Of a stretch of 64,000 nucleotides of DNA, positions 44,893-61,369 are shown in pieces (positions within the stretch are counted from its first letter, which is position 1; each line of letters starts with the position of its first letter). The position numbers were made by a program, and so were the translations under genes. The DNA comes from an uncultured Eubacteriales bacterium (GTDB lineage Bacteria > Bacillota > Clostridia > Peptostreptococcales > Anaerovoracaceae). The DNA is taken from positions 1 to 64,000 of the forward strand of contig CADADV010000001.1 of assembly GCA_902786815.1 (NCBI GenBank). The letters run 5' to 3'. A model generated the notes under the pieces. The model searched no databases. It was not told the origin of the DNA and saw only the letters and a program-made list of their open reading frames with translations.

Positions 44893-46888
44893 GAGAGTGG
44901 TCGCACTCATCATATCCTTCGCTATGCTGGCCTCGACATTTTATGTAGGGCCTGCTTTTGCTGCCGAAAACACCGACAGCACCGATTCAGATGTGAATGC
45001 GGAATATACAGTTCCGGAGGAAGGACTGCAGGAAGAGCCGGCTGGGGACGGCGAGGAGGTTCTCGAGCCCGAGGAGGGACCGGATCAGGATGCGCAGGGT
45101 ATGGAAGAAAGCACTGAGCCTGAAACTGAGCCGGAAGCAGAGCCTGAAGCAGAAGAAACGGAGGCAGTGCAGGAAGAAACCGAAGCTGAAGATCCTACGG
45201 TCCAGCTGATGGCATCAGCGAAGTCACGCCAGACGATCAGGGTCGTTGTGGCACTGAGTTCAACAAAGCGTGTTCTGCTCAAACCGGATGCCAGCGGAAC
45301 ATACACATTGAAGACAAGCGTTTCCAAAATCAGAAACAGCAAAAAAATCAGGATCATGATTTCCAATCCTGCGGAATGCCCGCTGACCTATTCCAAACAG
45401 AGCGTCGCATCGAATATAGGCGGCTCATTCCTGGATACTTCATTTGTCGGATGTACGATCAACTCGCCCGGGAAGATCAAGCTGATGAGTGACACCATGG
45501 AAGAGGCCGGCGTGGAGATGGTTGAAGCGGAGCCGATTCTCGAAGGCGAAGGCGGAGAAGGCGGTGAAGAACCGGGCAGCGGAGATGAACCGGGCGTTGA
45601 GCCGGGCGATGAACCGGGCGGCGGCGATGAACCGGGCGTTGAACCGGGCGGCGGTGATGATCCGGATCCCGGACAGGATGAGCCTGTCATCGGACCTGAT
45701 GATGTGCAGGTGACAGAGGTCGCGGTCAGAGTGAACGGGACCGGCGAGGCGAAATTCTATTTCAGCGCAAAGGCCGGAACAGACTTTACTTCAGCGAAGG
45801 GAAGAATCGTGATCAAGCAGACACGGCCTACATCTGTGCTCAGCAGAACGGCCAAGGTCAGGACAAAGACCGGCAAGCCAAAGACGATTCCGAGAAAATA
45901 TAAAGAGAGATACTTCAAGATCGTCAAAAAAGGAGATAACGAAAAGGCATTATACAAGTACAGAAAAGTCACCGCGCCATTTGAGATCAAGCGTGCATCC
46001 GGCATCAGCGAATCCGGTTACCGGGCCAACCAGGGCGGAGGAACGGACGGAACGTACAGCTACAATTGCCTCTGCAAAATAGGGAGCAAAACCTACGTGA
46101 AGATCGTTAAAACGAGGCTCAGGGATATGAAAGTCGTCAAAGTATCCAAGGACCTCAAGCTCAACCATGCGAACGATGTGACCTATGATCCTGTGCACAA
46201 GAGACTGGTGGTCACCCACAACGATGTGAAGAGAAAGAGAGTGACCTTTGTCAATACCAGGACACTTAAATCGATGGGGTACAAAGACATCAAGATTCCG
46301 AGCACTCTGAAGGGAGCGACGAAGAAACAGCTGTCTGCAATCAAAGGCTTCGCCAGCGTCACCTACATGAGGGGCGGAAAGTATGCCGGGAACTATATTG
46401 GCGTTATCAGCGGCAACCACAATTTCCTGGTGCTTAATAAGAAATTCAAGCCGATCGAATACATAACCGTAGACAAGAAGATCAACGGCGCACAGATCTA
46501 CTACCAGGGTGCGGACAATATCGGCGACAAACTGTATATCGCAGTATACCCGAGAAAAAAGAGCCGCAGGGATTTCATCGTCGCCTATGACATGGATGGC
46601 AATTTCCTCGGCAAGATCAACCTGCGCAAGGGATATGAAACGGAGAACATCTTCCATACGAAGAAGTATATGTACATGACACTGTACAAACCGGTCACGA
46701 AGGTCTGGTACACAGCGGAGCCTGTGGAGAAAAAGGTCAAGCTCACGAAGAAAGAGCGGCTGCTTGCCAAGAAGAACAAGGACGGCAAGAAACCGAAATA
46801 CAAGACTGTGATCAAAATCGTCAAGGTCAAGCACACGAAGAGTGTGAAACGCAGTTTTATCTTCAGAATGAACAAGGTGACACTATGA
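44879..46888 (+). CDS. Secreted protein of unknown function with acidic linker
   Basis: I do not recognise this 669-aa protein. Its ATG at 44879 overlaps the rmlB stop; an in-frame ATG at 44867 is an alternative. It has a signal peptide ending near AFAAEN, an acidic Glu/Pro linker ending in EDPTVQLMAS, and a first basic beta-rich domain. A Gly/Asp/Glu/Pro repeat spacer follows, then a long C-terminal part (about 330-669). That part has repeated strand pairs such as HANDVTYDPVHKRLVVTHND, ISGNHNFLVLNKKFKPIEYI and VAYDMDGNFLGKINLRKG, which resemble blades of a beta-propeller. The last 60 residues are very basic. Probably wall-associated, since its gene ends by overlapping an acyl-carrier gene inside the polymer locus. 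Confidence 0.55.
   Translation: MLTDRRVVALIISFAMLASTFYVGPAFAAENTDSTDSDVNAEYTVPEEGLQEEPAGDGEEVLEPEEGPDQDAQGMEESTEPETEPEAEPEAEETEAVQEETEAEDPTVQLMASAKSRQTIRVVVALSSTKRVLLKPDASGTYTLKTSVSKIRNSKKIRIMISNPAECPLTYSKQSVASNIGGSFLDTSFVGCTINSPGKIKLMSDTMEEAGVEMVEAEPILEGEGGEGGEEPGSGDEPGVEPGDEPGGGDEPGVEPGGGDDPDPGQDEPVIGPDDVQVTEVAVRVNGTGEAKFYFSAKAGTDFTSAKGRIVIKQTRPTSVLSRTAKVRTKTGKPKTIPRKYKERYFKIVKKGDNEKALYKYRKVTAPFEIKRASGISESGYRANQGGGTDGTYSYNCLCKIGSKTYVKIVKTRLRDMKVVKVSKDLKLNHANDVTYDPVHKRLVVTHNDVKRKRVTFVNTRTLKSMGYKDIKIPSTLKGATKKQLSAIKGFASVTYMRGGKYAGNYIGVISGNHNFLVLNKKFKPIEYITVDKKINGAQIYYQGADNIGDKLYIAVYPRKKSRRDFIVAYDMDGNFLGKINLRKGYETENIFHTKKYMYMTLYKPVTKVWYTAEPVEKKVKLTKKERLLAKKNKDGKKPKYKTVIKIVKVKHTKSVKRSFIFRMNKVTL
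45567..45670 (+). repeat. Degenerate Gly-Asp-Glu-Pro coding repeat
   Basis: Short repeats of the type GDEPGVEPG occur about five times in a row and encode an acidic, proline-rich spacer between the two domains of the 669-aa secreted protein. DNA copies are near-identical, so the tract could vary in length between strains. Confidence 0.75.
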
Positions 46889-47112
46889 GAGAAGAAGTAA
46901 TGGCAATACTGACAGAGATCAGGAAAGACGTCGATTTCGAGAATGAAACGAAACTGATCGATGACAGCATATTAGCGTCTTTGGATATCGTGGCGATCGT
47001 CGGTGAGTTCAACGATACGTTCGATGTTGAAATCTCTGTTGAGGATCTCATTCCGGAGAACTTTAACTCCGTCGACGCGATGGTCGCACTGATCGAAAGC
47101 GCGCAGGAATAA
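46885..47112 (+). CDS. Acyl carrier protein-like (ACP-1, upstream of MBOAT)
   Basis: This 75-aa acidic, helical protein has the carrier-protein size and the phosphopantetheine site SILASLDIV, with Ser32 as the attachment residue. The ATG overlaps the stop of the secreted-protein gene (ATGA), and an MBOAT gene follows 23 bases later. It is similar to the third carrier of this region (54041): both have LTEIR at 10-14, the Ser at 32 followed by Leu/Phe-Asp-Ile-Val, and PENF near the end. By analogy with DltC/DltB, it may carry an acyl or aminoacyl group for the MBOAT. The cargo is unknown. Confidence 0.8.
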   Translation: MREEVMAILTEIRKDVDFENETKLIDDSILASLDIVAIVGEFNDTFDVEISVEDLIPENFNSVDAMVALIESAQE

Positions 47113-47135
47113 GTTGCTGAAGAGGTTACCGGCAA

Positions 47136-48752
47136 ATGGCGTTTACATCATTGTACTTCTTAATATTTGCCGCGGTAACCGTAGGCGTCTACTACATCAT
47201 ACCGTCGGGCTTCCGGTGGATCTGGCTGCTGATCGCCAGCTACGCCTTTTATCTGCTGTCCAGCCCGGCGACGTTCATTTTTCTCCTGCTTACGACTGCA
47301 ACGACTTTTCTGGGAGGGCTGTATATCGGCGGCGTGAACCGCAGCCATAAGGCTTACATGGACGCCCATAAACAGGAGATGTCCCGCGAGGAAAAGAAAG
47401 CGGCTAAGGCTGCTTCCCAGTCCAAGAAAAAAAGAATGACTGCCCTGATCCTGGTGCTTGATTTTGGTGTGCTGGCAGTCCTCAAATACTTCCGATACTA
47501 CCTGCAGGCAGCAGGTATTTTTGATACAGGAGAACTTCTGATCCCGCTGGGAATCTCATTTTATACGTTCCAGTCTGCCGCATATATATTTGACCTGTAC
47601 AGGAACAAGATCGAGCCGGATCGGAACATCGCGAAGTTCGCCCTGTTCACATCCTTCTTCCCGCAGATCATTCAAGGGCCGATCAGCCGGTATGACCAGC
47701 TGGCAGGACAGCTCTATGAAGGGCATCGGTTCGAATATGAGAATCTGACCCACGGAGCGCAGCTCATTCTGTGGGGATTCTTCAAGAAACTGATCATCGC
47801 AGACCGGGCAGCGGTGCTTGTAAATGAAGTTTACGGCAATTACACGGAGTATACAGGGGGCGTGGTATTCATAGGGGTGCTGTTCTATATGATCCAGATC
47901 TACGCGGACTTCAGCGGCGGCATCGACATCGCCAGAGGCGTCGCCCGGTGCATGGGCATCCGCATGACGCACAACTTCCTGCGGCCGTATTTCGCCCATG
48001 ACTTGTCAGAATTCTGGAACAGATGGCATATCTCATTAAGCCACTGGTGCCGCGACTATATCTTCTATCCGGTTGCCATGTCCAAATTCTTCGGCAAGGC
48101 AGGCAAAAGCCTCCGGTCCGTTCTGGGCGACAGGGTGGGGAAACTCTTCCCGGTGATCATCGCCCAGTACTGCACATTCCTGACCATCGGAATGTGGCAC
48201 GGCGCGGAATTCAAATACATCGCATTCGGACTCTACAATGGCACGGTCATTGTGCTGGGGCTTTTGCTTGAGCCCGTGCTGAAGAAGATGACAGGCGCAA
48301 TCACAGGCGCGCTGCATATCGAGAAGCAGGGGCGGCTGTGGCAGGGCTTTCGGATCGTGCGCACCTTTTTTGTTGTATTGGCAGGAAGAGTATTCCCGAA
48401 GGCAGTCTCTTTCACTGCAGCAGTGAGCATGTTTTTCTCCATGTTCGTGCCCAACAGAGGGACGCCGTTTATGGAGACCGTCCTGAGCCTGGGATTAACG
48501 GGGGCGGATTATCTGATCATCGCAGGCGGATGCGCGGTCTGGTTCATCATCAGTTTCTGTGAAGAACGATACGCTGCCGCGGCAGGAACAGGAGGGATCG
48601 CTGCAGGAGCGGAAGCTGTCCGCAACCGGCTGGACGAGAAGCCGCTCGCTGTCAGATGGGCCCTGCTTCTGGCGGCCTTTGCATTCGTGCTGACATTCGG
48701 CATTTACGGGCCGGGATATGATGCTGCGGCATTTATTTACAGGGGTTTTTAG
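47136..48752 (+). CDS. MBOAT-family O-acyltransferase (DltB/AlgI/PatA-like)
   Basis: This 538-aa membrane-bound O-acyltransferase has about eleven hydrophobic segments. Family marks are IPLGISFYTFQSAAYIFDLY, FFPQIIQGPISRYDQ, DFSGGIDIARGVARCMGI, EFWNRWHISLSHWCRDYIFYP and IGMWHGAEFKYIAFGLYNG, where His355 is the conserved catalytic-type His. The C-terminal 130 residues are an extra hydrophobic region beyond a minimal DltB. The pairing with a carrier protein gene directly upstream resembles dltBC, but no DltA or DltD is next to it. Expected role is transfer of an acyl group to a hydroxyl of the exported polymer at the outer membrane face. Confidence 0.87.
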   Translation: MAFTSLYFLIFAAVTVGVYYIIPSGFRWIWLLIASYAFYLLSSPATFIFLLLTTATTFLGGLYIGGVNRSHKAYMDAHKQEMSREEKKAAKAASQSKKKRMTALILVLDFGVLAVLKYFRYYLQAAGIFDTGELLIPLGISFYTFQSAAYIFDLYRNKIEPDRNIAKFALFTSFFPQIIQGPISRYDQLAGQLYEGHRFEYENLTHGAQLILWGFFKKLIIADRAAVLVNEVYGNYTEYTGGVVFIGVLFYMIQIYADFSGGIDIARGVARCMGIRMTHNFLRPYFAHDLSEFWNRWHISLSHWCRDYIFYPVAMSKFFGKAGKSLRSVLGDRVGKLFPVIIAQYCTFLTIGMWHGAEFKYIAFGLYNGTVIVLGLLLEPVLKKMTGAITGALHIEKQGRLWQGFRIVRTFFVVLAGRVFPKAVSFTAAVSMFFSMFVPNRGTPFMETVLSLGLTGADYLIIAGGCAVWFIISFCEERYAAAAGTGGIAAGAEAVRNRLDEKPLAVRWALLLAAFAFVLTFGIYGPGYDAAAFIYRGF

Positions 48753-50116: not shown

Positions 50117-51262
50117 ATGATAAGTAAGAACCGTATGTTGTCAGAGGACTGTAAAGAAGTGTGCAGATCGTTGGGATATGATGTTTCCGGCAACGATAAC
50201 GATAAGCAGATGCCGTCATCCTATGCGTCCGGCGAAACGCTCCCCTATGACAAGGCATATATCTTTGTTTTAAATAAACTTGGTCTGAAGGCAAATCCGC
50301 AATTCGAACAGTTATTTGAATTATTCCAATCAAGGTATGAGAGATTTGTTGATCAAAATCAGAATGCTGCAGATCTGTCAGTCCTTTTCATGGATTGGTA
50401 TCAGCATGCAAATACAGAAGGGTTTACACCCGGAGAGTACTTTTATTATGAACTCTTCAATAAGGATGCAGAAGAACGCAGGACCTTTATCAGCAGCCGG
50501 GATAAGGCGGCGCTGAAAAAATTGAATGATCCTTTACGTTTTGCATACCTCAGCAACAGGGCGATATTCAATGAGCATTTTTCCGATCAGATAACAAGAG
50601 AATGGGTCAATGGGGTTACACGAGGAAGACAGGAAATACAGGAATTTATCGCGAAACATCAGGTTTTCTTCGTCAAGGCATCCAACGCAAACTACAAATA
50701 CAAGCCGGCAATCATCGACAGCAGCAAGTACCAGGAAAATGTACTGTTTGAACTGATGCATTACAAAGGCCTGCTGGCGGAGACGATCATTGAGCAGCAT
50801 GAGCAGCTTGCAGAGATCAACCCATCTTCACTCAACACCGTACGGGCAGTTGTTCGTTCTGATGGACAGGAGGCAAAAGTGGTGGCAGCCGCTGCGTCCT
50901 TTGGTAAAGATGGGGATGTGTATGACAGTTTTACCAGAACAGGTTTGGCTGCATCAGTAGATGTTGAGAGTGGCACGATCAATTCGCCGCTTGTGGACAA
51001 GTACAATAATGTATATGAGAAACATCCTGACACAAATGCATCGATTATAGGAATGGTTTATCCGGCGTGGAATCAGATATGTGATGTGGTCTGCAAAGCA
51101 ATGCTTGATTTCCCGGAACTAGTCAATGCCGGATGGGATGTCGCAGTCAGAAAAGACGGAGGCGTTGAGCTGATGGGAGGTGTGGCAGGCAACAACTACA
51201 TTGCCATGCAGATGCCGAATCAGCGGGGAATTCGAAACCTGTACGAAGATGTTCTGGAGTAG
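50117..51262 (+). CDS. Sugar-transfer-associated-type ATP-grasp protein (copy 2)
   Basis: This 381-aa paralogue of the preceding protein shows the same order: GFTPGEYFYYELF, NRAIFNEHFSDQITREWV, VFFVKASNANYKYKP, LLAETIIEQHEQLAEINPSS, LNTVRAVVRS and GWDVAVRKDGGVELMGG. The glycine-rich nucleotide loop of copy 1 (GGGGSGSG) is here replaced by SNANYKYK, and the C-terminal motif reads MGGVAGNN rather than VEGN. It may therefore have different or weakened ATP chemistry. The gene is also AT-rich. A GGAGA-type ribosome site precedes the ATG, and it is separated from the next gene by about 200 bases with a promoter. Confidence 0.68.
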   Translation: MISKNRMLSEDCKEVCRSLGYDVSGNDNDKQMPSSYASGETLPYDKAYIFVLNKLGLKANPQFEQLFELFQSRYERFVDQNQNAADLSVLFMDWYQHANTEGFTPGEYFYYELFNKDAEERRTFISSRDKAALKKLNDPLRFAYLSNRAIFNEHFSDQITREWVNGVTRGRQEIQEFIAKHQVFFVKASNANYKYKPAIIDSSKYQENVLFELMHYKGLLAETIIEQHEQLAEINPSSLNTVRAVVRSDGQEAKVVAAAASFGKDGDVYDSFTRTGLAASVDVESGTINSPLVDKYNNVYEKHPDTNASIIGMVYPAWNQICDVVCKAMLDFPELVNAGWDVAVRKDGGVELMGGVAGNNYIAMQMPNQRGIRNLYEDVLE

Positions 51263-51339: not shown

Positions 51340-51368
51340 TTGAAATAAACAGTGAAATATGGTATTAT
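51340..51368 (+). promoter_or_regulatory. Candidate promoter of the carrier/adenylation/condensation group
   Basis: TTGAAA (51340-51345) and TATTAT (51363-51368) are spaced by 17 bp and lie about 98 bases before the ATG at 51466. The 51263-51465 gap is very AT-rich and holds no convincing gene. A small imperfect hairpin (AAGTTC / GGACTT) lies at about 51384-51403. The start codon is preceded by a strong GAGGAGGT. Confidence 0.6.
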
Positions 51369-51465: not shown

Positions 51466-51681
51466 ATGGATATCAAAGAAAAAATCGCGAAGATTGAAGA
51501 GCTGCTTGATGTTGATGAAGGCACCCTTACAGAGGATACAGTGCTTGCGGAACTGGATGAATGGGATTCCATGTCGATTCTCTCCCTGATCGTCTATTTT
51601 GATGAAGAATGCGGGAAGAATATCTCCGGCGAAGAAATCAAGGATTTCGAGATAGTTAAGGACATTATGGATTTGATGTAA
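51466..51681 (+). CDS. Acyl/peptidyl carrier protein (ACP-2)
   Basis: This 71-aa acidic carrier protein has its phosphopantetheine site in LDEWDSMSILSLIVYF, with Ser35 as the attachment residue. The EWDSMS form is typical of stand-alone carriers paired with an adenylating enzyme. It has a strong ribosome site and is 31 bases upstream of the adenylation gene, its likely loading partner. It is distinct from the other two carriers in this region, which resemble each other. Confidence 0.88.
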   Translation: MDIKEKIAKIEELLDVDEGTLTEDTVLAELDEWDSMSILSLIVYFDEECGKNISGEEIKDFEIVKDIMDLM

Positions 51682-51712
51682 TCAGAAATAAGGCCAAACA
51701 GAGGAGAGTTTT

Positions 51713-53257
51713 ATGTACACCAGTTATATTGATTATTTTGAAGCAACGTTGCAGCGATGCCCTGACAAAACGGCGATCGTTGAAGAAGGAGTCAAATACG
51801 ATTTTAAGACGACTGCGGAGAACGCCCGCAAATTAGCGGCGGCGATCATCGGCAAAGTCGGAGAGACCAGGAACGAGCCGATTGCTGTATTTATGAAAAA
51901 GTCTGCGAATACTGCGTTCTCAGATATCGGGATCCTGTACAGTGCCAACGCATTTATGAATCTTGATATCAAAACGCCGATCGACCGTATCGGAGCGATC
52001 ATAGATCTGATCCAGCCGGCGTTGATCATCACAGACAAGTCGCAGTTTGAAAAGATCAGCGGCGAGGCAGGAGACCGCGTCGGCGTTCTGTGCGTCGAAG
52101 ACGTATTTGACGGGGCACCTGCTTCAGATGAAGATATGGAGTGCATCCGTGCCCGTCTGGCGATGCAGATCGACACCGATCCGTCATGTGTCATCAACAC
52201 ATCCGGTTCAACAGGAGTTCCGAAGGGCGTCGTGCTCAATCACAAGAGCTTCTTTGATTTTCTCGACTGGTCGGTCATCACATTCGGTCTTGACGAGACA
52301 GCCAATATGGGAAGCCTTTCACCGGCAGTCTTTGACATATTTGTTTATGAGCTGTGGCTGATGGCAGGAAAAGGCGCGACCATCACGCTTCTGAATGATG
52401 CGATGTCGATGTTCCCGGCGAGACTTCTCGAACAGCTGCGCGACGAGCATGTCAACTTTATCTTCTGGGTTCCGTCGATCATGGTCAATATCGCGAATAT
52501 GGATCTTCTGTCGAAAATCCAGCTGCCTGATCTGAGGCTGGTCTGGTTCGCCGGAGAAGTATTCCCGACGAAGCAGTTCAACTACTGGAGAAAAATGCTT
52601 CCGCAGACGAAGTTTGCGAACCTGTACGGACCGATTGAAATCACACTGGACTGCACGTTCTATGTTGTGGAGAGAGAGTTCGAGGACAGCGAGCCGCTGC
52701 CGATCGGATATGCCTGCAAGAATACAGATGTGCTGATCCTCAACGAGGACGACCAGCTGTGCAAACCGGGAGAGGAAGGCGAACTTTGCGTCAGAGGAAC
52801 CTCTCTGGCAATGGGATATTACAACAATCCGGAAAAGACTGCAGCAGCGTTCACACAGAACCCGCTCAACACGAAGTATCCGGAACTGATCTACAGGACC
52901 GGGGATGTCGTATTCGTCAACGAATTGGGCGAGATCGTGTTCAAGGGCCGCAAGGACAGCCTGATCAAGCACATGGGCTACAGGATCGAGCTTGGCGAGA
53001 TCGAACATGCGGTCATCAATAAACTGAAGATCGTAGAGTACTGCTGCGTTGTATATAACAAGCAGAAGAAGGAAATCACACTGATCTATGAATCACCGGA
53101 TGACGTTTCTCCGGGCACGATCAGAAAAGAACTCACGAAACTGTTCCCGAAGTATATGATCCCTGTGAAATACATCCGCAAGGATCAGCTTCCGAGAAAT
53201 ACGAACGGAAAGATCGACAGGAACAAGCTCAGTGAGGAGGTCAATCAGAATGACTGA
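51713..53257 (+). CDS. Amino-acid adenylation enzyme (stand-alone A domain, DltA-like)
   Basis: This 514-aa ANL-family enzyme activates a carboxylate as acyl-AMP and loads it on a carrier thiol. NRPS-type core motifs: A3 NTSGSTGVPKGVV (162-174), A4 VFDIFVYELW with Asp208, A5 NLYGPIEITLDC, A7 YRTGDVV, A8 GRKDSLIKHMGYRIELGEIE and A10 PRNTNGKIDRNKL with catalytic Lys500. Asp208 is the residue that binds the alpha-amino group in amino-acid-activating A domains, so an amino acid is the likely substrate. There is no condensation or thioesterase domain. ACP-2, immediately upstream, is the probable partner. It could be a DltA-type D-alanine ligase or one for another amino acid. Confidence 0.85.
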   Translation: MYTSYIDYFEATLQRCPDKTAIVEEGVKYDFKTTAENARKLAAAIIGKVGETRNEPIAVFMKKSANTAFSDIGILYSANAFMNLDIKTPIDRIGAIIDLIQPALIITDKSQFEKISGEAGDRVGVLCVEDVFDGAPASDEDMECIRARLAMQIDTDPSCVINTSGSTGVPKGVVLNHKSFFDFLDWSVITFGLDETANMGSLSPAVFDIFVYELWLMAGKGATITLLNDAMSMFPARLLEQLRDEHVNFIFWVPSIMVNIANMDLLSKIQLPDLRLVWFAGEVFPTKQFNYWRKMLPQTKFANLYGPIEITLDCTFYVVEREFEDSEPLPIGYACKNTDVLILNEDDQLCKPGEEGELCVRGTSLAMGYYNNPEKTAAAFTQNPLNTKYPELIYRTGDVVFVNELGEIVFKGRKDSLIKHMGYRIELGEIEHAVINKLKIVEYCCVVYNKQKKEITLIYESPDDVSPGTIRKELTKLFPKYMIPVKYIRKDQLPRNTNGKIDRNKLSEEVNQND

Positions 53258-54040: not shown

Positions 54041-54265
54041 ATGGAGAATAAACTACTGGAAATGCTGACCGAGATCAGACCGGAATTCGATTTTAATGAA
54101 AGTGATGATTATGTAGCGGATGGATATCTGGATTCTTTTGATATCGTTACATTGATCAGCATGATAGAAGAAGAGCTTGGCGTCTCGATCGATGGCCTGG
54201 ATATCGTTCCGGAAAACTTCAAAAATCTTGAGTCCATCACTGCAATGATTCAGAGGAGCAAATAA
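54041..54265 (+). CDS. Acyl carrier protein-like (ACP-3, upstream of KAS III)
   Basis: This 74-aa acidic carrier protein has the attachment site in GYLDSFDIV with Ser32. It is a paralogue of ACP-1 (46885): LTEIR, the Ser at the same residue number, DIV, and VPENF near the C-terminus are shared. AAAGGAGAG precedes the start. It lies between the SDR and the KAS III-type gene (3 bases upstream of the latter), so it probably carries the extender or product of that condensing enzyme. Confidence 0.87.
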   Translation: MENKLLEMLTEIRPEFDFNESDDYVADGYLDSFDIVTLISMIEEELGVSIDGLDIVPENFKNLESITAMIQRSK

Positions 54266-54268: not shown

Positions 54269-55339
54269 ATGAAGACGATATTCAAGGGGAAAAAGATCTC
54301 CGGCATTCTGGGCATCCTGCCGGAGACCGTGTCATATTTCGATGATGAGGTCAACAACTACACTTTCCCGGTAAAGCAGACAAAAAGACTGAAGAAAATC
54401 ATGGGCTTCGAGTCGCACAGACTTTCCAAGCCTGAAAGTTTTGCTTCGGATTTTTGCATGTTTGGGGTTCGTTATCTGCTGGATAACGAACTTATCAAAA
54501 AAGAAGAGATCGGAGCAGTACTGGTAGTCACTCTTTCTCCGGATTATTATCTGCCGCAGATCAGCAATACGATCCAGGGAGAATTAGAACTTCCGCAGGA
54601 TGTGATCTGCATGGATATCCCGCAGGGATGCTGCGGATATCTGCTGGGATTGATGCAGTCGTTTATGCTCCTTGATCATATGCCGGACAAAAAGATCGTT
54701 CTGTGCAATGTAGATGTTCTGAGTAAAAAAGTATCAAAGCAGGATCGGAACGATTTCCCGCTGATCGGAGACGGTGCGTCCGTATCTGTCATTGAGAACG
54801 ATCCGTCTGCACCGGATATTTACTACACGATGTATACGGACGGAACAAGAAGGGATGCGCTCAGGATACCTGCCGGCGGATTCCGCATGCCTTGTTCTGA
54901 AGAAACAGGGAAGGTCGTTGATATCGGAGACGGAAACCTTCGTGCACTCGACCATATGCACATGGATGGAAGTGCTGTATTCTCTTTCGTACAGGAGGAA
55001 GTTCCTCCGTGTATCGAGGAGATCCTGGAGTATGCGGGACAGACCAAAGAGTCGATCGACTATTATATGTTCCACCAGCCAAACCGCTTTATGGTTCGGA
55101 AACTCCGCGAAAAGATCGAGGTACCAGCAGAGAAGATGCCGGACGATCTTGTAACGAAATACGGCAACCCGAGCGGTGTTTCCATTCCTCTGGTGATTAC
55201 AGATTCAGTAGGCGAAGCTTTAGAGAAAGATAAATATACATGCTGCCTTTCAGCCTTTGGCTCAGGACTGGCATGGGGTGCAATGATCATGGAATTGGGT
55301 GATCTGGGATTTTGCAAACTGGTAGAATCCGATCTCTAA
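54269..55339 (+). CDS. KAS III-type (FabH-like) ketoacyl synthase
   Basis: This 356-aa thiolase-fold condensing enzyme has a complete KAS III triad: Cys121 in DIPQGCCGYLLGLM, His269 in YMFHQPNRFMV and Asn300 in KYGNPSGVSIP. The C-terminus has the usual glycine-rich AFGSGLAWGAMIMEL. It is longer and more divergent than housekeeping FabH (about 310-330 aa), and there is no other fatty-acid gene except the dedicated carrier and SDR. Related stand-alone enzymes make short beta-ketoacyl groups for sugar acylation or specialised metabolites. Starter and extender cannot be read; a starter from the adenylation enzyme or an acyl-CoA is possible. Confidence 0.88.
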   Translation: MKTIFKGKKISGILGILPETVSYFDDEVNNYTFPVKQTKRLKKIMGFESHRLSKPESFASDFCMFGVRYLLDNELIKKEEIGAVLVVTLSPDYYLPQISNTIQGELELPQDVICMDIPQGCCGYLLGLMQSFMLLDHMPDKKIVLCNVDVLSKKVSKQDRNDFPLIGDGASVSVIENDPSAPDIYYTMYTDGTRRDALRIPAGGFRMPCSEETGKVVDIGDGNLRALDHMHMDGSAVFSFVQEEVPPCIEEILEYAGQTKESIDYYMFHQPNRFMVRKLREKIEVPAEKMPDDLVTKYGNPSGVSIPLVITDSVGEALEKDKYTCCLSAFGSGLAWGAMIMELGDLGFCKLVESDL

Positions 55340-55349
55340 GGAGGCATGC

Positions 55350-56141
55350 ATGGATCATTCAAAAGAATATATTCTGGAAAAAGCGGGTCAGATCAGGAAG
55401 AGCAAGCAGGATTTTTACTTCTCGAATCTCTACACTTTGACGCAGGATCCGATCGTCGTTGCTGAAACGGAACAGGCGATTGCGTTTGCAGTGCAGGACA
55501 GAGATGTCAAGAGAGTATTCTTCTCTGCGGCGTCTCCCGAAGCACTGACGGAAGTGCTGAAACAGATGCCGGAGAAATCAGGTATCGAGATCATGGGCCG
55601 CACACTCGATGAGAGGGCAAAGCAGGCCATCCTGGATGCAGGGTATGGTCTGTTTGCCACGTATTTGCGTGCAACAAATGCGAAATTAAAAGACACTTAC
55701 AGCAGCAACATCCCGGATCGGTTCAAAGGCATCGATTTGGATTCATATGTTTCTGAACCGACAGAGGAGCAGATCGACGAGATCCGCGCGCTGCTTTACA
55801 GCAAGTTCAGGCCGCTGACAAGCCACATCCAGACAAAGGAAGAGCTTGCGCAGCAGAACCGTGAAAAGTGTGTTCTGGTATCAGTTCGGGACGGGGAGAT
55901 CGTCACATTGCTCACCCATTTCAGGCAGGGAAAGAAACTGTACATGGAGCATATGATCAACGTCGGCGAAAGCGAACGGATGCACGCCTTGTATTTCAAG
56001 GTGCTGCAGGATGCGGTCGATGACGGGATCAATTATGCTTACACATGGATGAGAACGGACAACACAAGAGCGCATGCTTTTGCAGGAAGATACGGGCTTG
56101 TCGATGACAAAATGAGAAATTTCGTCTTTGAAAAGGCATAA
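55350..56141 (+). CDS. GNAT-like acyltransferase candidate
   Basis: This 263-aa protein starts at ATG 55350 after AAGGAGG. The C-terminal half (about 160-263) looks like a GNAT fold: CVLVSVRDGEIVTLLTHFRQ, LYMEHMINVGESERMHALYFKVLQDAVDDG and WMRTDNTRAHAFAGRYGLVDD, where the last segment is the family's final helix-strand. The N-terminal half has mixed alpha/beta pattern and may be a second degenerate GNAT. The ordinary R/Q-x-x-G-x-G/A acetyl-CoA loop is not clear, so the donor may be a carrier protein. Given the condensing enzyme directly upstream, acyl transfer from ACP-3 is plausible. Confidence 0.55.
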   Translation: MDHSKEYILEKAGQIRKSKQDFYFSNLYTLTQDPIVVAETEQAIAFAVQDRDVKRVFFSAASPEALTEVLKQMPEKSGIEIMGRTLDERAKQAILDAGYGLFATYLRATNAKLKDTYSSNIPDRFKGIDLDSYVSEPTEEQIDEIRALLYSKFRPLTSHIQTKEELAQQNREKCVLVSVRDGEIVTLLTHFRQGKKLYMEHMINVGESERMHALYFKVLQDAVDDGINYAYTWMRTDNTRAHAFAGRYGLVDDKMRNFVFEKA

Positions 56142-56173: not shown

Positions 56174-56830
56174 ATGCAAATACGCACTTATACATACGAA
56201 CTGATCGACTCCAAGATGTACATAATGATAGAAGGCAGCGAGGCGTTGATCATCGATCCGTGCATTTCTGAGGAAGCGGTCACAATGCTGAGATCCGAGG
56301 AAGTGGACAATGTTTTGATACTCCTGACACATGAGCATTATGATCATATGTCAGGGCTGGAGCTGTTCAGAGATGCATTCAGCTCCTGCCGTGTATTAGT
56401 ATCAGAGATATGTAATACGTATATGCAAAAGCCGACCAGAAACGGTTCCAAATACTTCAAGGCATTGTTTATAGACAAAGAGAGTGACCGTATCGAGGAG
56501 GCAGGACAAGTACCTGCGGTTTCCTATACGGGAGATGAGTTCTTTACCGGGGAGACACAGTTCGACTGGCAGGAGCATAAGATTTTTATCCGTGAAACAC
56601 CGGGTCATTCTCCGGGCAGTGTGTGCATCATCATCGATGACAGCATCCTGTTTACAGGGGATTCCCTGCTCAAAGATGATCCCGTGGTGGTCAAACTTCC
56701 GGGCGGCAACCGGAAAGATTACAATGAATATACTGTGCCGTATCTCCAATCGCTGGACGAAGAACTGATGGTTTATCCCGGCCATGGAGAAAGCGGTGTT
56801 CTGAAGGAGTTTAAGATAGGAGAGGTTTAA
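56174..56830 (+). CDS. Metallo-beta-lactamase-fold hydrolase
   Basis: This 218-aa protein has a full MBL metal site: THEHYDHM with His53, His55, Asp57 and His58, HSPG then LFTGDSLLKDD, and YPGHGE near the C-terminus. It is the size of glyoxalase II-like thioesterases. A thioesterase editing or releasing acyl groups from one of the three carrier proteins fits the neighbourhood, but the fold alone does not decide between thioester and other hydrolase activity. It is followed by a GNAT gene one base after its stop. Confidence 0.87.
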   Translation: MQIRTYTYELIDSKMYIMIEGSEALIIDPCISEEAVTMLRSEEVDNVLILLTHEHYDHMSGLELFRDAFSSCRVLVSEICNTYMQKPTRNGSKYFKALFIDKESDRIEEAGQVPAVSYTGDEFFTGETQFDWQEHKIFIRETPGHSPGSVCIIIDDSILFTGDSLLKDDPVVVKLPGGNRKDYNEYTVPYLQSLDEELMVYPGHGESGVLKEFKIGEV

Positions 56831-56831: not shown

Positions 56832-57635
56832 TTGAAAAAAGTAACAGACAAAGCAACAGAAGCGAGAATACTTGATTACATCAGACCGCATCTGGGAGAA
56901 TGCATCTATCTGTATATCGATGTTTCGGTTTATGGGATAGACAGTCCGTTTTTGGATCTTTGGTATGATGAAGACGAGGATGGTATCTGTTTCGTCGTTA
57001 TGAGATATCATGATTCTCTCCAGATCTACAGTCACAAGGACGACTGGGATAAAGGCGCCCTGATGGACATTATCCGTGAATACGATATCCAGGCGGTCAA
57101 TGCGAAGGGAAGTATGCTTGACGCACTTGACGAAGAGCTGGGCGACAGCTATGAGAAGCGGACAGGCTGGATCCTGAAAGGCAAGTCAATGGCCGATCTT
57201 AAAGTTGACGGTCTGATGGAAGTCGAAGTAGCAGGCGTAGAGGATACAGAAGAAATCGCTGAACTGATGCAGTCCCACCAGCACTGGAAAAAGATGTATC
57301 CGAACAAAGAAAAACTTGCAGGTCAGCTTGCCGAAAGAATCGAGAGCGGGATGGGCCGCAGCCTGGTGATCAGAGATAAGGGAAGAATCGTTGCGCATGA
57401 TGCGACATTCGCAGAAACGGATGATATAGCAATGGGTTCCGGCTTGATCGTTCTGGATGAATATGTCGACCGGATGTGCAATGTTGCACTGGCTGTCGCT
57501 ATGGATAAGATGATGCGGGAGGAAGGAAAAGAAAAGTATTTCCATCTCTCAGATCCCCATCGCATGAAAGCATTTAAGAAAATAGGAAATACTGTTGTTG
57601 CAGAAACAGGAAAGTGGATGAAGAAAAATGGCTAA
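56832..57635 (+). CDS. GNAT-family acyltransferase
   Basis: This 267-aa protein starts at TTG 56832, directly after AGGAGAGG. The C-terminal half resembles GNAT: VEVAGVEDTEEIAELMQSHQ begins the fold, LVIRDKGRIVAHDATFAET and IAMGSGLIVLDEYVDR form the central strands, and FHLSDPHRMKAFKKIGNTVV the final part. The N-terminal half (FVVMRYHDSLQIYSHKDDWD) looks like a second GNAT-like or FemX-type lobe. It overlaps the LicD-like gene by eight bases. Expected to N-acylate an amine, perhaps the 4-amino sugar; unproven. Confidence 0.65.
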   Translation: MKKVTDKATEARILDYIRPHLGECIYLYIDVSVYGIDSPFLDLWYDEDEDGICFVVMRYHDSLQIYSHKDDWDKGALMDIIREYDIQAVNAKGSMLDALDEELGDSYEKRTGWILKGKSMADLKVDGLMEVEVAGVEDTEEIAELMQSHQHWKKMYPNKEKLAGQLAERIESGMGRSLVIRDKGRIVAHDATFAETDDIAMGSGLIVLDEYVDRMCNVALAVAMDKMMREEGKEKYFHLSDPHRMKAFKKIGNTVVAETGKWMKKNG

Positions 57636-58836
57636 CATACAGGAGAGAATCGCTGAACTGATGAGTGAGATCCATGCGATCTGCGTGGCAAACGGGATCA
57701 CATATTATCTGGATGAACAACTTGCCGTACAAGCGGAGGTCAATCATGCCCTTGACGCGAATGTGACTACCGGAAGAGTTTTGATGACGGCAGAGGATCT
57801 GAAAAAGTTCATTGCGGCTTTTGAAGAATCTCCGGCAGAGAACAGGGAAATAGAATATCTGAAAACCAACGGATTCTATCCGGCCTTTAATGTGAAATAC
57901 GTGGATGCGAGTTCTGTATTTTACAATATGAGGAGACTGGCATGTGAACGCTGCATGGGGCTGTATGTCATCATCAGCGTGCTCAAACCTGTCGGCCTGA
58001 AGAGCAAGGTTCACCAGACGATCGAACAGACATGGGAAAGTCTGTCACATGATGAGAAAATCATCGGCAGAAGACTCGGCCCTGTTGTAGCGTACAGATT
58101 CAGACGCAGTATCGTGAAACAGGGACGGAACAAGACAGCCTCGGATCTGTTCGATTATCTTCTTGAAGAGTATTCCGGAGAATCCCGCAGGAATGAATAC
58201 TGGACCGTCAAGAAGACCGGCAAGAAGGTGGCAAAGCGCAGTATGGTCATTCCCGCCAAACGTACTATGGTGGAACTATACGGGCATCAGTTATATACAT
58301 TTGAAACTGATACAGAACTGTTCCAGGAACTGAAAGAAAAGTACATGCGCAAGAAGAAAAAAGAGTTTATCAACAGTGAGATGCACTTTGCGGATGCGGA
58401 CGTTTCTTATAAAGATCTGGATCTGGACCAGTTCAGAGATATCATACGCCCGATGAGCGCGGAGAGCGTCGACATCAGAAGACCGGCGGTGCGTATCCGC
58501 AAGAAGAGGCGTAAATACTTTAACAAACTGCGCAAGACCCACTTAAGGTATTATTACGGACTGTTGTTTGAGGATCAGATCGACGACCTTGAACGAATGC
58601 TGAAAGAGGGACAGTTCGAACAGCTGGAAGAGATCATGGATCCTTATGTGGAAGATCTCCGGAAGTTAAAGAACATCTATATCAGTGAACGTATCAATAA
58701 CATACTAAGGGAACACTATGATATTGATACGGAAGAGATGTTTTCTGATTACCAGGAGTTTTATAAGGAAGGCATCAAAATCTACGATTACAAAGGCAAC
58801 TATATTAGAACAGTAGCGGGGACGAAAGATGAGTGA
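57628..58836 (+). CDS. LicD-like protein lacking the catalytic aspartates
   Basis: This 402-aa protein starts like LicD phosphotransferases: RIAELMSEIHAICVANGITYYLDEQ matches the entry helix and strand of the intact LicD encoded next, residue for residue in spacing (ANGI-YYL at 21-28). Where LicD has GGT-LGA-RH-GFIPWDDDVD, this protein reads AVQAEVNHALDANVTTGRVL at 33-52, with no WDDD. It is therefore probably inactive. The C-terminal half is basic and helical (VRIRKKRRKYFNKLRK). It overlaps the intact LicD gene by eight bases, suggesting a heteromer or scaffold role. Confidence 0.65.
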   Translation: MANIQERIAELMSEIHAICVANGITYYLDEQLAVQAEVNHALDANVTTGRVLMTAEDLKKFIAAFEESPAENREIEYLKTNGFYPAFNVKYVDASSVFYNMRRLACERCMGLYVIISVLKPVGLKSKVHQTIEQTWESLSHDEKIIGRRLGPVVAYRFRRSIVKQGRNKTASDLFDYLLEEYSGESRRNEYWTVKKTGKKVAKRSMVIPAKRTMVELYGHQLYTFETDTELFQELKEKYMRKKKKEFINSEMHFADADVSYKDLDLDQFRDIIRPMSAESVDIRRPAVRIRKKRRKYFNKLRKTHLRYYYGLLFEDQIDDLERMLKEGQFEQLEEIMDPYVEDLRKLKNIYISERINNILREHYDIDTEEMFSDYQEFYKEGIKIYDYKGNYIRTVAGTKDE

Positions 58837-60622
58837 ACTTCAATTGATTTTATACGGGTTACTGTGCCGCTTTGATGATATATGCCGGAAGAACGGTATC
58901 AAATACTATCTGAGCGGCGGCACGAACTTAGGAGCGCTGCGACACAAAGGATTTATTCCATGGGATGACGATGTTGATGTCAGAATGCCGCGGAAAGAAT
59001 ACGAAAAGCTGGAAGCGGTTTTTGACGAGGCGAAAGAAGACGACTCGATTGAACTCGTCAGCCGCATCAGGTATCCCGGACAGTACTGCAGCCCGATTCC
59101 GCGTGTGATGGATATGCATACGACTTCTGTTACGAAAGGAAGAATGGCAGATGGCACGCCCCATGGTGTTTTCCTTGACATTCTGATTCTGGATCCGATT
59201 CCGCGTGATGAGGAGCGCCTGTTACAGTGGAAAAAAGACCATTATGTTTATTGCGAACTTCTGGAACAGCCGCTTCAGGTCGCTGCGCGCGCGGCTAACT
59301 GGGAAGGTATCGATATCCCGTATTACCGCGAGATCAAAGAAAGAGCTGACATAGAAGGCAGGGAACCGGTCTTAAAGGAACTGGAAGAGAGGCTGTTCTG
59401 CATTGACGAGGAAGATGCAGATAAATACTGCATGCGTTTCGGAGCGACCTGGCTGGGCATCACGCCGATCGAGTGGTACGGAGAACCAAGAGACGTCCAG
59501 TTCGAGGACAGAGTATTCTATGCAGCAAGCAAGGCGGAATTCTGCGCCTACACCAATTATGGATATGAGTGGAGATATATCCCGAATATCGAGAAAAGGA
59601 CAGGCCATACGACATTCAAGCTCCTCGATGTTGATTCCGGGAACCTTGAACGTGAGTATTCGCAGTTCGTAGACTTTGAGAAGCTTTATGCGACGCATGT
59701 CAGGTATAAAAATGCGAGAATCAATTATTACGAACTGAAGCATCGGATCTGTGCCGACAGAGTCAAACCTTATGTGCACTATATCAACTTCAAACTCGAT
59801 CGGGACATCCGGAAGCTGGGTGAGGATTATATCAGGCAGAATACAGCAGAAGGCCTGGCTCTGTTTGCTGAATACACTAAGCTCCAGATGCGTATGGAGT
59901 TCTTCCGCAATAAGATATATATCGATTTGTCAGACCGTAACGCGGATCTGTTATCCTATCTGTGTTATCATGAGAATAAACTGACAGTACTTGAGGCGAT
60001 CCTGAACATTCGAAACCATGAACTGGGAGGCCTCAGCGAGTACCAGAAATCGATCTTTGATTTCTGCACAGACGCCATCGCCATGATGATGAATATCGAC
60101 GTCAAGGAATTCGATGCCGCCGATGCTCTGTACAGGAAACAGGAAGAGGAACATCGTGATCAGCTGACGATGGTCAAAGCCAGGATCCAGATCGATTTGG
60201 CAAAAGCAGAAAACCCGGAAGATTATGAAAAGATCAAAGCCTTCGCGGAGCACGCATTGACCCTTTATCCGGGCAATGGGGAACTGCTGAAGTATTACGG
60301 GGATGCATATGAAGGAACCGGTGATACAGCAAAGGCAGCAGAACTGTACGATGAAGCCCTTGACACGATCAACAATGGACTTCTCCTTGTCGAATTAATG
60401 GAAAAAGGTGTTCAGAAAGCGTTCGACAGGATGGAAGATCTGTGTAACATAACGGAAGATATGGGTGAAGATGATGCCGACGACGCAGAGATGACGCAGG
60501 AGGATGAACTCATCGCAACAACCGAGAGGGAATCCGGAGGCGAAGCCGAAACGGAAACGGAAACTGAATCCGAGGCAGAATCCGAAGCAGACGAAACAGA
60601 AACTGAAAAAGAAACCGAGTAA
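58829..60622 (+). CDS. LicD-family phosphotransferase with helical and acidic tail
   Basis: This 597-aa protein has an intact LicD domain (about 1-270): YYLSGGTNLGALRHKGFIPW, then DDDVDV with Asp46, Asp47, Asp48 and Asp50, and GVFLDILILDPIPRD. LicD proteins transfer phosphocholine or related phospho-groups from a CDP carrier to sugars of teichoic acids or glycans. Residues about 280-540 are helical, with a TPR-like pair near LYPGNGELLKYYGDAYEGTG. The last about 60 residues are an acidic Glu-Thr/Ser-Glu repeat (bases about 60541-60618). No licA or licC is recognisable in the window, so the group transferred need not be choline. Confidence 0.85.
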   Translation: MSELQLILYGLLCRFDDICRKNGIKYYLSGGTNLGALRHKGFIPWDDDVDVRMPRKEYEKLEAVFDEAKEDDSIELVSRIRYPGQYCSPIPRVMDMHTTSVTKGRMADGTPHGVFLDILILDPIPRDEERLLQWKKDHYVYCELLEQPLQVAARAANWEGIDIPYYREIKERADIEGREPVLKELEERLFCIDEEDADKYCMRFGATWLGITPIEWYGEPRDVQFEDRVFYAASKAEFCAYTNYGYEWRYIPNIEKRTGHTTFKLLDVDSGNLEREYSQFVDFEKLYATHVRYKNARINYYELKHRICADRVKPYVHYINFKLDRDIRKLGEDYIRQNTAEGLALFAEYTKLQMRMEFFRNKIYIDLSDRNADLLSYLCYHENKLTVLEAILNIRNHELGGLSEYQKSIFDFCTDAIAMMMNIDVKEFDAADALYRKQEEEHRDQLTMVKARIQIDLAKAENPEDYEKIKAFAEHALTLYPGNGELLKYYGDAYEGTGDTAKAAELYDEALDTINNGLLLVELMEKGVQKAFDRMEDLCNITEDMGEDDADDAEMTQEDELIATTERESGGEAETETETESEAESEADETETEKETE

Positions 60623-60637
60623 CTGGGAGGTTTGAGT

Positions 60638-61369
60638 ATGGGCGATGTCTTATCTAACAAGATGGATGATTATGTGATCGGTATCGTTGGCGGCATGGGG
60701 TCCTATGCAACGGTCAAATTTTTTGAACGTATCATAGATTCCTATCCTGTCGAAAGAGAATGGGAGCGTCCGAGAATCGTGATCGACAATAAATGCACGA
60801 TGCCGAGCCGCGTTAGGTCTATTCTCTATGATGAGAATACAGAGCTGCTGATCAGTGAGCTGACAGATTCTGTCCGCGGACTGATGGATATGGGCGCGAC
60901 AAAGATCGTGCTGGCGTGCAACACGTCACATTGTTTCCTGCCGGAGGTTTTGAAGAATGTCCCGGAAGCGGAAGACAAGATCGTTCATATTATCACTTCC
61001 TGTGCGGAAATGATAAAGCGTGATGGGCTGAACAAGGTGTTCCTGATGGCTACCGAGGGGACGCTGCTATCGAAGATCTATGAGAACACCTTTGAGCCGT
61101 ACGGCATCGAGTGTGTTGCGGCGACAGAAGATGATTTCCCGATCATGCGGGAATATATCGAAGCAGTAAAGCAGAAGCAAATCACCGATGAGATGAAAGA
61201 CGATTTCGTCAATTACATCAATAATGCTGAAACCGATGCTGTGATCCTGGGATGTACAGAGCTTCCGATCCTGTATGCGGAACTGGGAGACAAAAAAGCT
61301 GAAATCACCAAGAAAATCTATGATCCGCTGGATGCAGCACTGCTTAAGATCAAGAACGGAACGGTATAG
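60638..61369 (+). CDS. Aspartate/glutamate racemase-family protein
   Basis: This 243-aa protein has the two-cysteine racemase pattern: LACNTSHCFLPEV with Cys94 and VILGCTELPIL with Cys206, plus the N-terminal IGIVGGMGSYATVKFFERI typical of aspartate racemase. Both catalytic cysteines are present, so racemisation of Asp, Glu or a related amino acid is likely. I chose the ATG at 60638, seven bases after GGGAGG, over a TTG at 60632. It is the last gene before a terminator and ends the region with the adenylation enzyme; a supply of D-amino acid for polymer decoration is inferred. Confidence 0.87.
   Translation: MGDVLSNKMDDYVIGIVGGMGSYATVKFFERIIDSYPVEREWERPRIVIDNKCTMPSRVRSILYDENTELLISELTDSVRGLMDMGATKIVLACNTSHCFLPEVLKNVPEAEDKIVHIITSCAEMIKRDGLNKVFLMATEGTLLSKIYENTFEPYGIECVAATEDDFPIMREYIEAVKQKQITDEMKDDFVNYINNAETDAVILGCTELPILYAELGDKKAEITKKIYDPLDAALLKIKNGTV

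What the first reader, a model, noticed from the sequence alone, without database searches (positions are those of the whole stretch)
46885..61369. Carrier-protein-based acyl/aminoacyl decoration module inside a wall-polymer locus
Seen: three carrier proteins, an MBOAT, an amino-acid-type A domain, a FabG-like SDR, a KAS III with intact Cys121-His269-Asn300, two GNAT-like proteins, an MBL hydrolase, a LicD pair and a racemase, mostly tightly spaced. Known: dltABCD uses an A domain, a carrier and an MBOAT, and flagellin viosamine islands use a KAS III, SDR and carrier to acylate a 4-aminosugar. Inference: this module combines both chemistries to make an unusual (hydroxy)acyl or aminoacyl group for the polymer. 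I know of no described teichoic acid system with this full set.
Basis: partly seen in the sequence, partly recalled or inferred. Interest (0 to 1): 0.87.

Follow-up and report, generated by a model that had tools for sequence, protein, structure and literature searches.

The report
Amino-acid-primed sugar-acylation gene cassette
A wall-polymer gene region of an unnamed bacterium carries a small, probably mobile set of genes that may build an unusual amino-acid-derived group and hang it on a surface sugar, next to a second acylation gene pair that seems to belong to a different system.

Summary
The genes are there: three carriers, MBOAT, A domain, SDR, KAS III with Cys121-His269-Asn300, one LicD plus a degenerate partner, an MBL protein, a racemase, and one well-supported (one doubtful) GNAT. 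But this is not one module. (1) CP1-MBOAT (46885-48752) is a Dlt-like pair found at 63-75% (MBOAT) and 73-85% (CP1) identity in all four other genus genomes searched, none with a KAS III at E<=1e-20; its likely loader is a non-amino-acid-type adenylating enzyme about 100 kb away. (2) CP2-A-SDR-CP3-KAS III-GNATa (51466-56141) is a separate cassette. KAS III relatives 38-76% identical occur in Bacillota, Campylobacterota, Bacteroidota and Fibrobacterota; in 24 such loci an A domain lies within 10 kb in 22, a CP3-like carrier in 23, an MBOAT in 2. RmlA, RmlB and a WecE-type transaminase in the window would give dTDP-4-amino-4,6-dideoxygalactose, a natural acceptor; GNATa models as a double GNAT with WecD among its matches. 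Most likely the A domain loads an amino acid on CP3, KAS III extends it, the SDR reduces it and GNATa amidates the sugar. The cargo is unknown. The nearest described relative, the viosamine pathway, has no A domain: a new variant of a known kind.

The parts
46885..47112 (+). CP1, DltC-like carrier protein of the CP1-MBOAT pair (separate system)
   Evidence: PP-binding 1.7e-4; 73-85% identical copies directly upstream of the MBOAT in four other genus genomes; 31% to CP3
47136..48752 (+). MBOAT, DltB-like O-acyltransferase (separate system)
   Evidence: Pfam MBOAT 2.3e-12; TIGR04091 DltB 154 bits, cut-off 375; only MBOAT found in the genome
48816..50099 (+). ATP-grasp (ATPgrasp_ST) protein 1, role unknown
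   Evidence: Pfam 8.3e-44
50117..51262 (+). ATP-grasp (ATPgrasp_ST) protein 2, role unknown
   Evidence: Pfam 5e-29
51340..51368 (+). promoter-like site in the 203-bp gap before the cassette
   Evidence: TTGAAA-17-TATTAT with TG before it; consensus match only, no excess over shuffles
51466..51681 (+). CP2, carrier protein of the cassette (probable extender carrier)
   Evidence: PP-binding 0.0021, under the cut-off; 68% identical to the L032 carrier next to the 74% identical A domain
51713..53257 (+). A domain, alpha-amino-acid type, probable loader of CP3
   Evidence: AMP-binding 1.1e-56; pocket code DIYIWALLDK, with D208 and K500 at the places of GrsA D235 and K517 (GrsA numbering recalled)
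53232..54014 (+). SDR, FabG-like reductase
   Evidence: adh_short_C2 1.3e-37; YxxxK motif in the translation
54041..54265 (+). CP3, carrier protein of the cassette, partner of A domain and KAS III
   Evidence: PP-binding 3.5e-5; CP3/CP1/F14-type carrier within 10 kb of 23 of 24 related KAS III genes, mostly touching
54269..55339 (+). KAS III with C121-H269-N300
   Evidence: Pfam ACP_syn_III and _C; triad; one of 24 rows on one side of a tree branch, SH-aLRT 89, not starred
55350..56141 (+). GNATa, double-GNAT N-acyltransferase, proposed to amidate the aminosugar
   Evidence: AlphaFold2 pLDDT 89.4; Foldseek matches include VipF, mycothiol synthase and WecD; homologue near 9 of 24 related KAS III genes
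56174..56830 (+). MBL-fold hydrolase, possible thioesterase
   Evidence: Lactamase_B 7.7e-18; homologue near 5 of 24 related KAS III genes; thioesterase role is a guess
56832..57635 (+). possible second GNAT (unsure)
   Evidence: Acetyltransf_6 E 0.015; poor model
57628..58836 (+). degenerate LicD-like protein
   Evidence: 24% over 125 aa to the next gene, E 8e-5
58829..60622 (+). LicD family phosphotransferase
   Evidence: Pfam LicD 1.2e-34
60632..61369 (+). Asp/Glu-type amino-acid racemase
   Evidence: Pfam 1.3e-21; TIGR00035 130 bits over cut-off 93.1
20219..21355 (+). WecE-type transaminase making dTDP-4-amino-4,6-dideoxygalactose
   Evidence: PRK11706 513 bits (cut-off 375), TIGR02379 463 (cut-off 434.85); PDB hits 4piw, 6blg
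42994..43869 (+). RmlA
   Evidence: TIGR01207 454 bits, cut-off 360.65
43873..44892 (+). RmlB
   Evidence: TIGR01181 493 bits, cut-off 365.1

Best explanation
Two carrier-protein acylation systems lie side by side. The second, 51466-56141, is a probably horizontally acquired, free-standing mini assembly line. Step 1 (inferred from the pocket code and gene order): the A domain activates an alpha-amino acid and loads it on CP3. Step 2 (inferred): KAS III, whose condensing triad is intact, takes the aminoacyl group from CP3 and condenses it with malonyl, supplied by the cell's fatty-acid pathway, probably on CP2. Step 3 (inferred): the SDR reduces the new keto group, giving a hydroxylated, amino-acid-derived acyl thioester. 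Step 4 (inferred): GNATa, a double GNAT, transfers it to the 4-amino group of dTDP-4-amino-4,6-dideoxygalactose made by RmlA, RmlB and the WecE-type transaminase (families shown). The acylated sugar then goes into the wall polymer or another surface glycan of this locus. The CP1-MBOAT pair next door is an older Dlt-like O-acylation pair with its own, non-amino-acid adenylating enzyme elsewhere in the genome. The two-system split is well supported (I put it at about 0.85 alone); the exact chemistry is inference.
For: Of 24 loci holding a KAS III of the same kind (window left out), 22 have an A domain, 23 a CP3/CP1/F14-type carrier (the 24th, L045, has it fused to a formyl transferase), 17 a CP2-type carrier, 17 an SDR and 20 at least one of three N-acyltransferase types (my union of the printed rows) within 10 kb. 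Control: 15 loci with only other KAS IIIs; an A domain in 4 (L053, L057, L137, L139). The window's KAS III and 23 of the 24 (the split one of L043 left out) form one side of a branch, SH-aLRT 89, not starred. Cys-His-Asn in all 39 KAS IIIs aligned, window included. A-domain code DI[YF]IWALLDK in window, L032, L036, L039, L040, L041. RmlA, RmlB and WecE-type enzymes over their curated cut-offs. WecD among GNATa's Foldseek matches. Some relatives (L034-L036) carry a carboxyltransferase or a FabD-like malonyl transferase; this genome has FabD, two KAS II and an ACP on contig 12 and one phosphopantetheinyl transferase. L143-L145 sit with NeuB, i.e. nonulosonic-acid aminosugars. CP1-MBOAT without KAS III in 4 of 4 other genus genomes. 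Among the genes measured GC3 falls from 0.66-0.79 (DegT to RmlB) to 0.47-0.65 (ATP-grasp pair to racemase).
Against: No cargo, acceptor or polymer was tested. The sugar genes lie about 7 to 30 kb from the cassette, not inside it; a DegT aminotransferase is within 10 kb of only 9 of 24 relatives. The nearest relative L032 and seven others hold a second KAS III that the window genome lacks at E<=1e-20, so the window cassette may be incomplete or work differently. GNATa's homologues among relatives are only 18-43% identical; WecD ranks 17th by E-value with TM 0.50/0.59. A free amino group beside the thioester could cyclise to a lactam; the formyl transferase that might mask it in 6 of 24 relatives has no counterpart among the window genes scanned with Pfam. 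The A domains counted include weak or partial ones (L051 and L052 at 27-30%; a 92-aa end piece in L033; L034 and L035 nearest at 22-23%, with a 41-42% one 6-7 kb off) and two on the other strand (L037, L143). The 24 loci are not independent (L034/35, L040/41, L042/43/46/47, L049/50 and L051/52 are close kin), and one search's peptide seeds favour near relatives. GC3 is also moderate in genes outside the cassette (CP1 0.59, the gene before it 0.62, the one after the racemase 0.60).
Confidence: 0.45

Rival explanations
1. The group moved is a plain aminoacyl (perhaps N-acylated) unit: the A domain loads CP3 and the KAS III acts as a transacylase or relay rather than making a C-C bond.
For: A-domain/CP3/KAS III are the most constant trio (22 and 23 of 24), while CP2 and SDR are each missing in 7; formyl transferase sits between A domain and CP3 in L042 and L048 and is fused to a CP3-like carrier in L045, as if capping an aminoacyl group.
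Against: All 39 KAS IIIs aligned keep the full Cys-His-Asn set, expected for decarboxylative condensation (recalled); SDR accompanies 17 of 24 and malonyl-supply genes some.
Confidence: 0.25
2. One reading: the A domain loads CP1 as well, and MBOAT moves the KAS III-made or aminoacyl group to the polymer outside.
For: CP1 and CP3 are homologous (31%); the genes are neighbours; this is the only MBOAT found in the genome, whereas sister genomes G127 and G162 have a second, shorter one (464-aa frame); an A domain-carrier-MBOAT trio with an amino-acid-type pocket exists in G190 (L120).
Against: CP1-MBOAT exists without the cassette in four of four other genus genomes; acyl-type A domains, 48-64% identical to a LysR-fused enzyme at C1:149245-151701, lie near it in four of nine relatives' loci; MBOAT near 2 of 24 relatives of the KAS III.
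Confidence: 0.12
3. The cassette makes a small soluble peptide-polyketide metabolite, not a glycan substituent.
For: Its parts are typical of such pathways; the best PDB matches of the A domain are linear gramicidin synthase; some Bacteroidota relatives lie near SusE and other non-glycan genes.
Against: Among 127 neighbours (core genes taken out, 160 aa or more) of 20 relative loci the three commonest Pfam families at E<=1e-10 are glycosyltransferase 2 (8), DegT aminotransferase (7) and sugar transferase (4); NeuB in L143-L145.
Confidence: 0.12
4. The KAS III is the cell's FabH, starting fatty acids.
For: The contig-12 fab operon shows no FabH and this is the only KAS III found at E<=1e-20.
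Against: The four other genus genomes have no KAS III at that threshold either; the gene sits with dedicated carriers and an A domain.
Confidence: 0.04

Closest known systems
Viosamine island (vioS, vioR, acp, vioB) of Pseudomonas syringae flagellin (PMC3927599, passages read)
   Same: KAS III, SDR, small carrier, N-acyltransferase and a dTDP-4-aminosugar made with a DegT-type aminotransferase; hydroxyacyl amide on the 4-amino group
   Different: No A domain among its seven genes; flagellin rather than wall locus; sugar is viosamine rather than a WecE-type product; a methyltransferase (vioM) that I did not find among the cassette genes
Campylobacterota sugar loci with KAS III, carriers, A domain or FkbH (ten fetched, L137-L146; likeness to the Campylobacter flagellin locus around Cj1293-Cj1317 is by recall)
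   Same: L143-L145 have the same kind of KAS III (38-41%) with A domain, carrier, SDR and N-acyltransferases, next to NeuB
   Different: Acceptor route is nonulosonic acid; FkbH instead of an A domain in 5 of the 10; L137 and L139 have only more distant KAS IIIs (25-32%); a flagellin motif search in the fetched loci found none
dltABCD teichoic acid D-alanylation
   Same: Loader enzyme, carrier and MBOAT; CP1-MBOAT is DltC/DltB-like
   Different: All parts score under the Dlt cut-offs; CP1-MBOAT's presumed loader has no amino-acid-type pocket
Enterobacterial common antigen WecE-WecD
   Same: WecE-type transaminase over cut-off; WecD fold among GNATa's matches
   Different: WecD uses acetyl-CoA (recalled); here an amino-acid-derived thioester is proposed
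Linear gramicidin synthase LgrA initiation (A domain, formylation; role recalled)
   Same: Best PDB match of the A domain; some relatives pair A domain, formyl transferase and carrier
   Different: Free-standing proteins, KAS III instead of condensation domain, glycan setting; no formyl transferase among the window genes scanned

Membership tests
dltABCD system | DltA-type ligase | tested here: not met
   277.6 and 269 bits against cut-offs 476 and 559.85
dltABCD system | DltB | tested here: not met
   154 bits, cut-off 375; nonetheless an MBOAT
dltABCD system | DltC | tested here: not met
   CP1 31.0 bits (cut-off 68) and 20.3 (cut-off 52.35); CP3 matches no DltC model at 1e-5
dltABCD system | DltD | not tested
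   DltD model not searched in the genome; no such Pfam match among the window genes scanned
dltABCD system | D-alanine on the polymer | not testable with these tools
   -
Viosamine-type carrier acylation | KAS III with intact condensing triad | tested here: met
Viosamine-type carrier acylation | SDR and dedicated carrier beside it | tested here: met
Viosamine-type carrier acylation | dTDP-4-aminosugar genes | tested here: met
   RmlA, RmlB, WecE type in the window, over cut-offs; but about 7 to 30 kb away and WecE rather than VioA
Viosamine-type carrier acylation | N-acyltransferase for the 4-amino group | tested here: inconclusive
   GNATa double-GNAT fold, WecD among matches
Viosamine-type carrier acylation | no amino-acid loader | tested here: not met
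   A domain inside the cassette; none among the seven genes tabled in PMC3927599
Amino-acid-activating A domain | Asp at the GrsA D235 place and Lys at the K517 place | tested here: met
   D208 and K500; GrsA numbering recalled, mapped by motif
Cross-phylum KAS III cassette described here | KAS III in the same tree group, with A domain and CP3-like carrier beside it | tested here: met
   group support 89, not starred

The most novel reading that the evidence does not exclude
A cross-phylum family of free-standing, amino-acid-primed mini polyketide lines for glycans: a fixed chassis (CP3 and its KAS III) with an exchangeable starter loader (A domains with at least four pocket types, FkbH in the sister KAS III lines) and exchangeable transferases (GNATa, AAC-like, PglD-like, formyl transferase), making statine-like gamma-amino-beta-hydroxyacyl groups on aminosugars, here for a Gram-positive wall polymer.
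Probability: 0.25. Interest if true: 0.78.

Novelty: new variant of a known kind. Interest (0 to 1): 0.55.

Why it matters
If right, it shows how bacteria of four phyla diversify surface sugars with amino-acid-derived acyl groups by swapping loader and transferase genes around one condensing enzyme, and it makes the cargo of a set of A-domain/KAS III genes directly testable with purified carriers. It also separates a second, Dlt-like O-acylation pair whose loader appears not to use an amino acid.

Tried and rejected
Rejected: one unified module; KAS III as FabH; racemase, second GNAT and ATP-grasp pair as cassette parts (0 of 24). Led nowhere: PDB sequence search of the two GNAT candidates (none; one match at E 0.083, unrelated by name); single-sequence model of the second GNAT candidate; naming the amino acid from the pocket code, since no code that I can recall matches; a flagellin motif search in the fetched loci (none). 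Literature: ten searches, whose listings showed no teichoic acid system with this set and no A-domain/KAS III glycan cassette; the library holds open-licence PMC papers only, so this is weak evidence of absence. I read passages of PMC3927599, PMC3283744, PMC2846917 and PMC3068675; all other papers only as search listings. Rows dropped: the KAS III of L043, split into two frames, left out of the tree by length and absent from the 39 rows; its locus is counted in the 24. Of 13 genomes with a hit among 199 of the order of the Helicobacter record ten loci were fetched, three of which fall in the group; G329 and G338 were not fetched and G202 is the genome of L037. Gene kinds are best BLAST hits to window or representative proteins, not curated names.
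Full report
Setting. The window lies in a 2.2-Mb draft genome of 45 contigs, 92% complete, not named to me. Between about 14 and 42 kb it holds a ribitol-type wall-polymer locus: three LytR-CpsA-Psr proteins, TarI, a TarJ-like dehydrogenase, TagG, TagH, five proteins with a TagF-type domain and YfhO. It also holds RmlA, RmlB and a transaminase over the curated cut-off of the dTDP-4-amino-4,6-dideoxygalactose (WecE) families (PDB matches 4piw and 6blg).

Observation. The KAS III triad C121-H269-N300 is exact. The region has two tight blocks, split at 51263-51465 by 203 bp of 31% G+C with a promoter-like site (21 such sites in the region against 22.0 in shuffles, so only its place speaks for it).

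First system: CP1-MBOAT. The window MBOAT is the only one found in its genome. Homologues at E<=1e-15 occur in 161 of 197 family genomes, own included, and in all four other genus genomes at 63-75% identity, while none of these four has a KAS III at E<=1e-20; overall 32 of 197, own included, do. I fetched nine loci of relatives' best MBOATs (L111-L117, L121, L122); CP1 is directly upstream in seven (68-85% identical), 3 kb off in one (48%) and absent from a short contig in one; no best hit to KAS III, SDR, CP3 or GNATa was found in any. In four of the nine a divergent A domain lies near the pair (L113, L114, L115, L122). Its pocket letters (for example SHRIQGFCSK) lack the aspartate of amino-acid activators, and its homologue in this genome, 57-64% identical to three of them and 48% to the fourth, lies at contig 1, 149245-151701, about 100 kb downstream, fused to a LysR-type N-terminus (LysR by eye, not by a model). 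NCBIfam places such enzymes nearest acyl-CoA synthetases, under every cut-off shown. So this pair most likely has its own, non-amino-acid loader. Three further fetched loci hold second MBOATs: L118 and L119 without CP1, and L120 (G190) with an A domain (31% to the window's, pocket DVKAMSLCHK, amino-acid type), carrier (50% to CP1) and MBOAT (32%) in a row, which looks like a true Dlt-type trio apart from that genome's CP1-MBOAT.

Second system: the cassette. A scan of genome contigs with the KAS III gave 21 loci at 42-76% identity, by title in Lachnospiraceae and other Clostridiales, Helicobacter, Fibrobacter and Bacteroidota. A search of 199 genomes of the order of the Helicobacter record gave 13 with hits at E<=1e-50; ten of those loci were fetched and three of them fall in the same group. 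In these 24 loci, within 10 kb of the KAS III: A domain 22, CP3/CP1/F14-type carrier 23 (and in L045 a carrier fused to a formyl transferase), CP2-type carrier 17, SDR 17, GNATa 9, AAC-like 9, PglD-like 9, DegT 9, a second KAS III 8, formyl transferase 6, MBL 5, LicD 3, TarI/J-like 2, MBOAT 2, and none with the racemase, second GNAT, ATP-grasp pair or the four TagF-type proteins asked for. Loci are cut at contig ends (L032, L049 and L050 most), so counts are lower bounds; several loci are close kin; some A domains are weak, partial or on the other strand (listed under evidence against). In 15 loci fetched with only other KAS IIIs (L053-L060, L137-L142, L146), an A domain appeared in 4. All ten KAS IIIs labelled as beside FkbH fall outside the group in the tree. 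The nearest relative, L032, reads KAS III-SDR-CP2-A-SDR-CP3-KAS III-GNATa with the last KAS III at 76%, A domain at 74% and CP2 at 68%. The window has the same order less the first KAS III and SDR. Absence from sister species, spread over phyla at high identity and a drop in GC3 (0.66-0.79 from DegT to RmlB against 0.47-0.65 from the ATP-grasp pair to the racemase; selected genes) suggest horizontal arrival.

Chemistry. D208 and K500 mark an amino-acid A domain; the ten-letter code DI[YF]IWALLDK is shared by six loci including the window, and other loci have DNL[VA][LFI]ALVDK (L038, L042-L045, one of three in L037), DMLVLGMGTK (L046, L047), DIQAMGVVNK (L034, L035) or DVQMITFIYK (L051, L052). 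So the loader's substrate probably varies while the chassis stays. All 39 KAS IIIs aligned keep Cys-His-Asn. L034-L036 bring a carboxyltransferase and L035-L036 a FabD-like protein (F13, F16), which speaks for malonyl extension. Formyl transferase lies between A domain and CP3 in L042 and L048 and is fused to the carrier in L045; it could mask the amine. GNATa has a confident model; Foldseek returns tandem GNATs such as VipF and mycothiol synthase and, at rank 17, WecD, the TDP-fucosamine acetyltransferase (TM 0.50 by query, 0.59 by target). As WecD's substrate is what RmlA, RmlB and the WecE-type enzyme make, an acyl amide on that sugar is my best reading. In L143-L145 the same kind of KAS III sits with NeuB, and in P. 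syringae KAS III, reductase and carrier genes lie in the viosamine island, where loss of vioR removed modified viosamine from the flagellin glycan (PMC3927599, passages). Neither has been shown to involve an A domain in anything I read.

What is not shown. No loading, condensation, reduction or transfer was tested; the cargo amino acid is not named; that the product ends in the wall polymer is inferred from position only. The window cassette lacks the second KAS III and first SDR of its nearest relative, and may be reduced. The KAS III group support is 89, not starred, from a quick tree with some long branches.

Verdict. A real and coherent cassette, new in its combination as far as I could search, but not the hybrid described: the MBOAT and CP1 most likely belong elsewhere. 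It would work like viosamine-type carrier acylation with an added amino-acid loader; it is not a member of the Dlt system.

Noticed in passing
G000 contig 1, 149245-151701 (L106, L123): An 818-aa frame joins a LysR-like N-terminus (by eye) to an acyl-type adenylating domain 48-64% identical to enzymes near CP1-MBOAT in four other genomes.
   Followed up: partly
L112 11881-13299; L114 1096-3615: Genes near CP1-MBOAT in relatives include a DASS-like anion symporter and a sulfonate/taurine-like ABC importer (all under the NCBIfam cut-offs), as if the O-acyl acid were taken up.
   Followed up: no
G000 contig 12, 4225-10038 (L071): The fab operon has carrier, FabD, two KAS II and (by eye) FabK, FabG and FabZ but no FabH; no other KAS III in the genome at E<=1e-20.
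   Followed up: partly
G000 contig 19, 2408-3786 (L073): A further small carrier sits between a MaoC-like (by eye) and an MBL-like (by eye) protein, another carrier/MBL pair.
   Followed up: no
L120 (G190 contig 65), 10078-13388: A domain, carrier and MBOAT in a row with an amino-acid-type pocket: a Dlt-like trio in a sister genome, separate from its CP1-MBOAT.
   Followed up: partly
window 39651-42102: An ATP-grasp protein and a phenylacetate-CoA-ligase-like protein (PaaK models far under cut-off) lie together just before the rml genes: a possible further activation route.
   Followed up: no
L053-L056, L138, L140-L142, L146: FkbH-like proteins beside KAS III, in sister KAS III lines: a possible glyceryl-type starter loader in the place of the A domain.
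   Followed up: partly
L043 9989-11056: The KAS III of this Winogradskyella locus is split into two frames.
   Followed up: no
L040 and L041: Three KAS III-like proteins and four carriers in one locus. LuxC- and LuxE-type proteins were found among the neighbours of the 20 loci (which loci was not printed).
   Followed up: no
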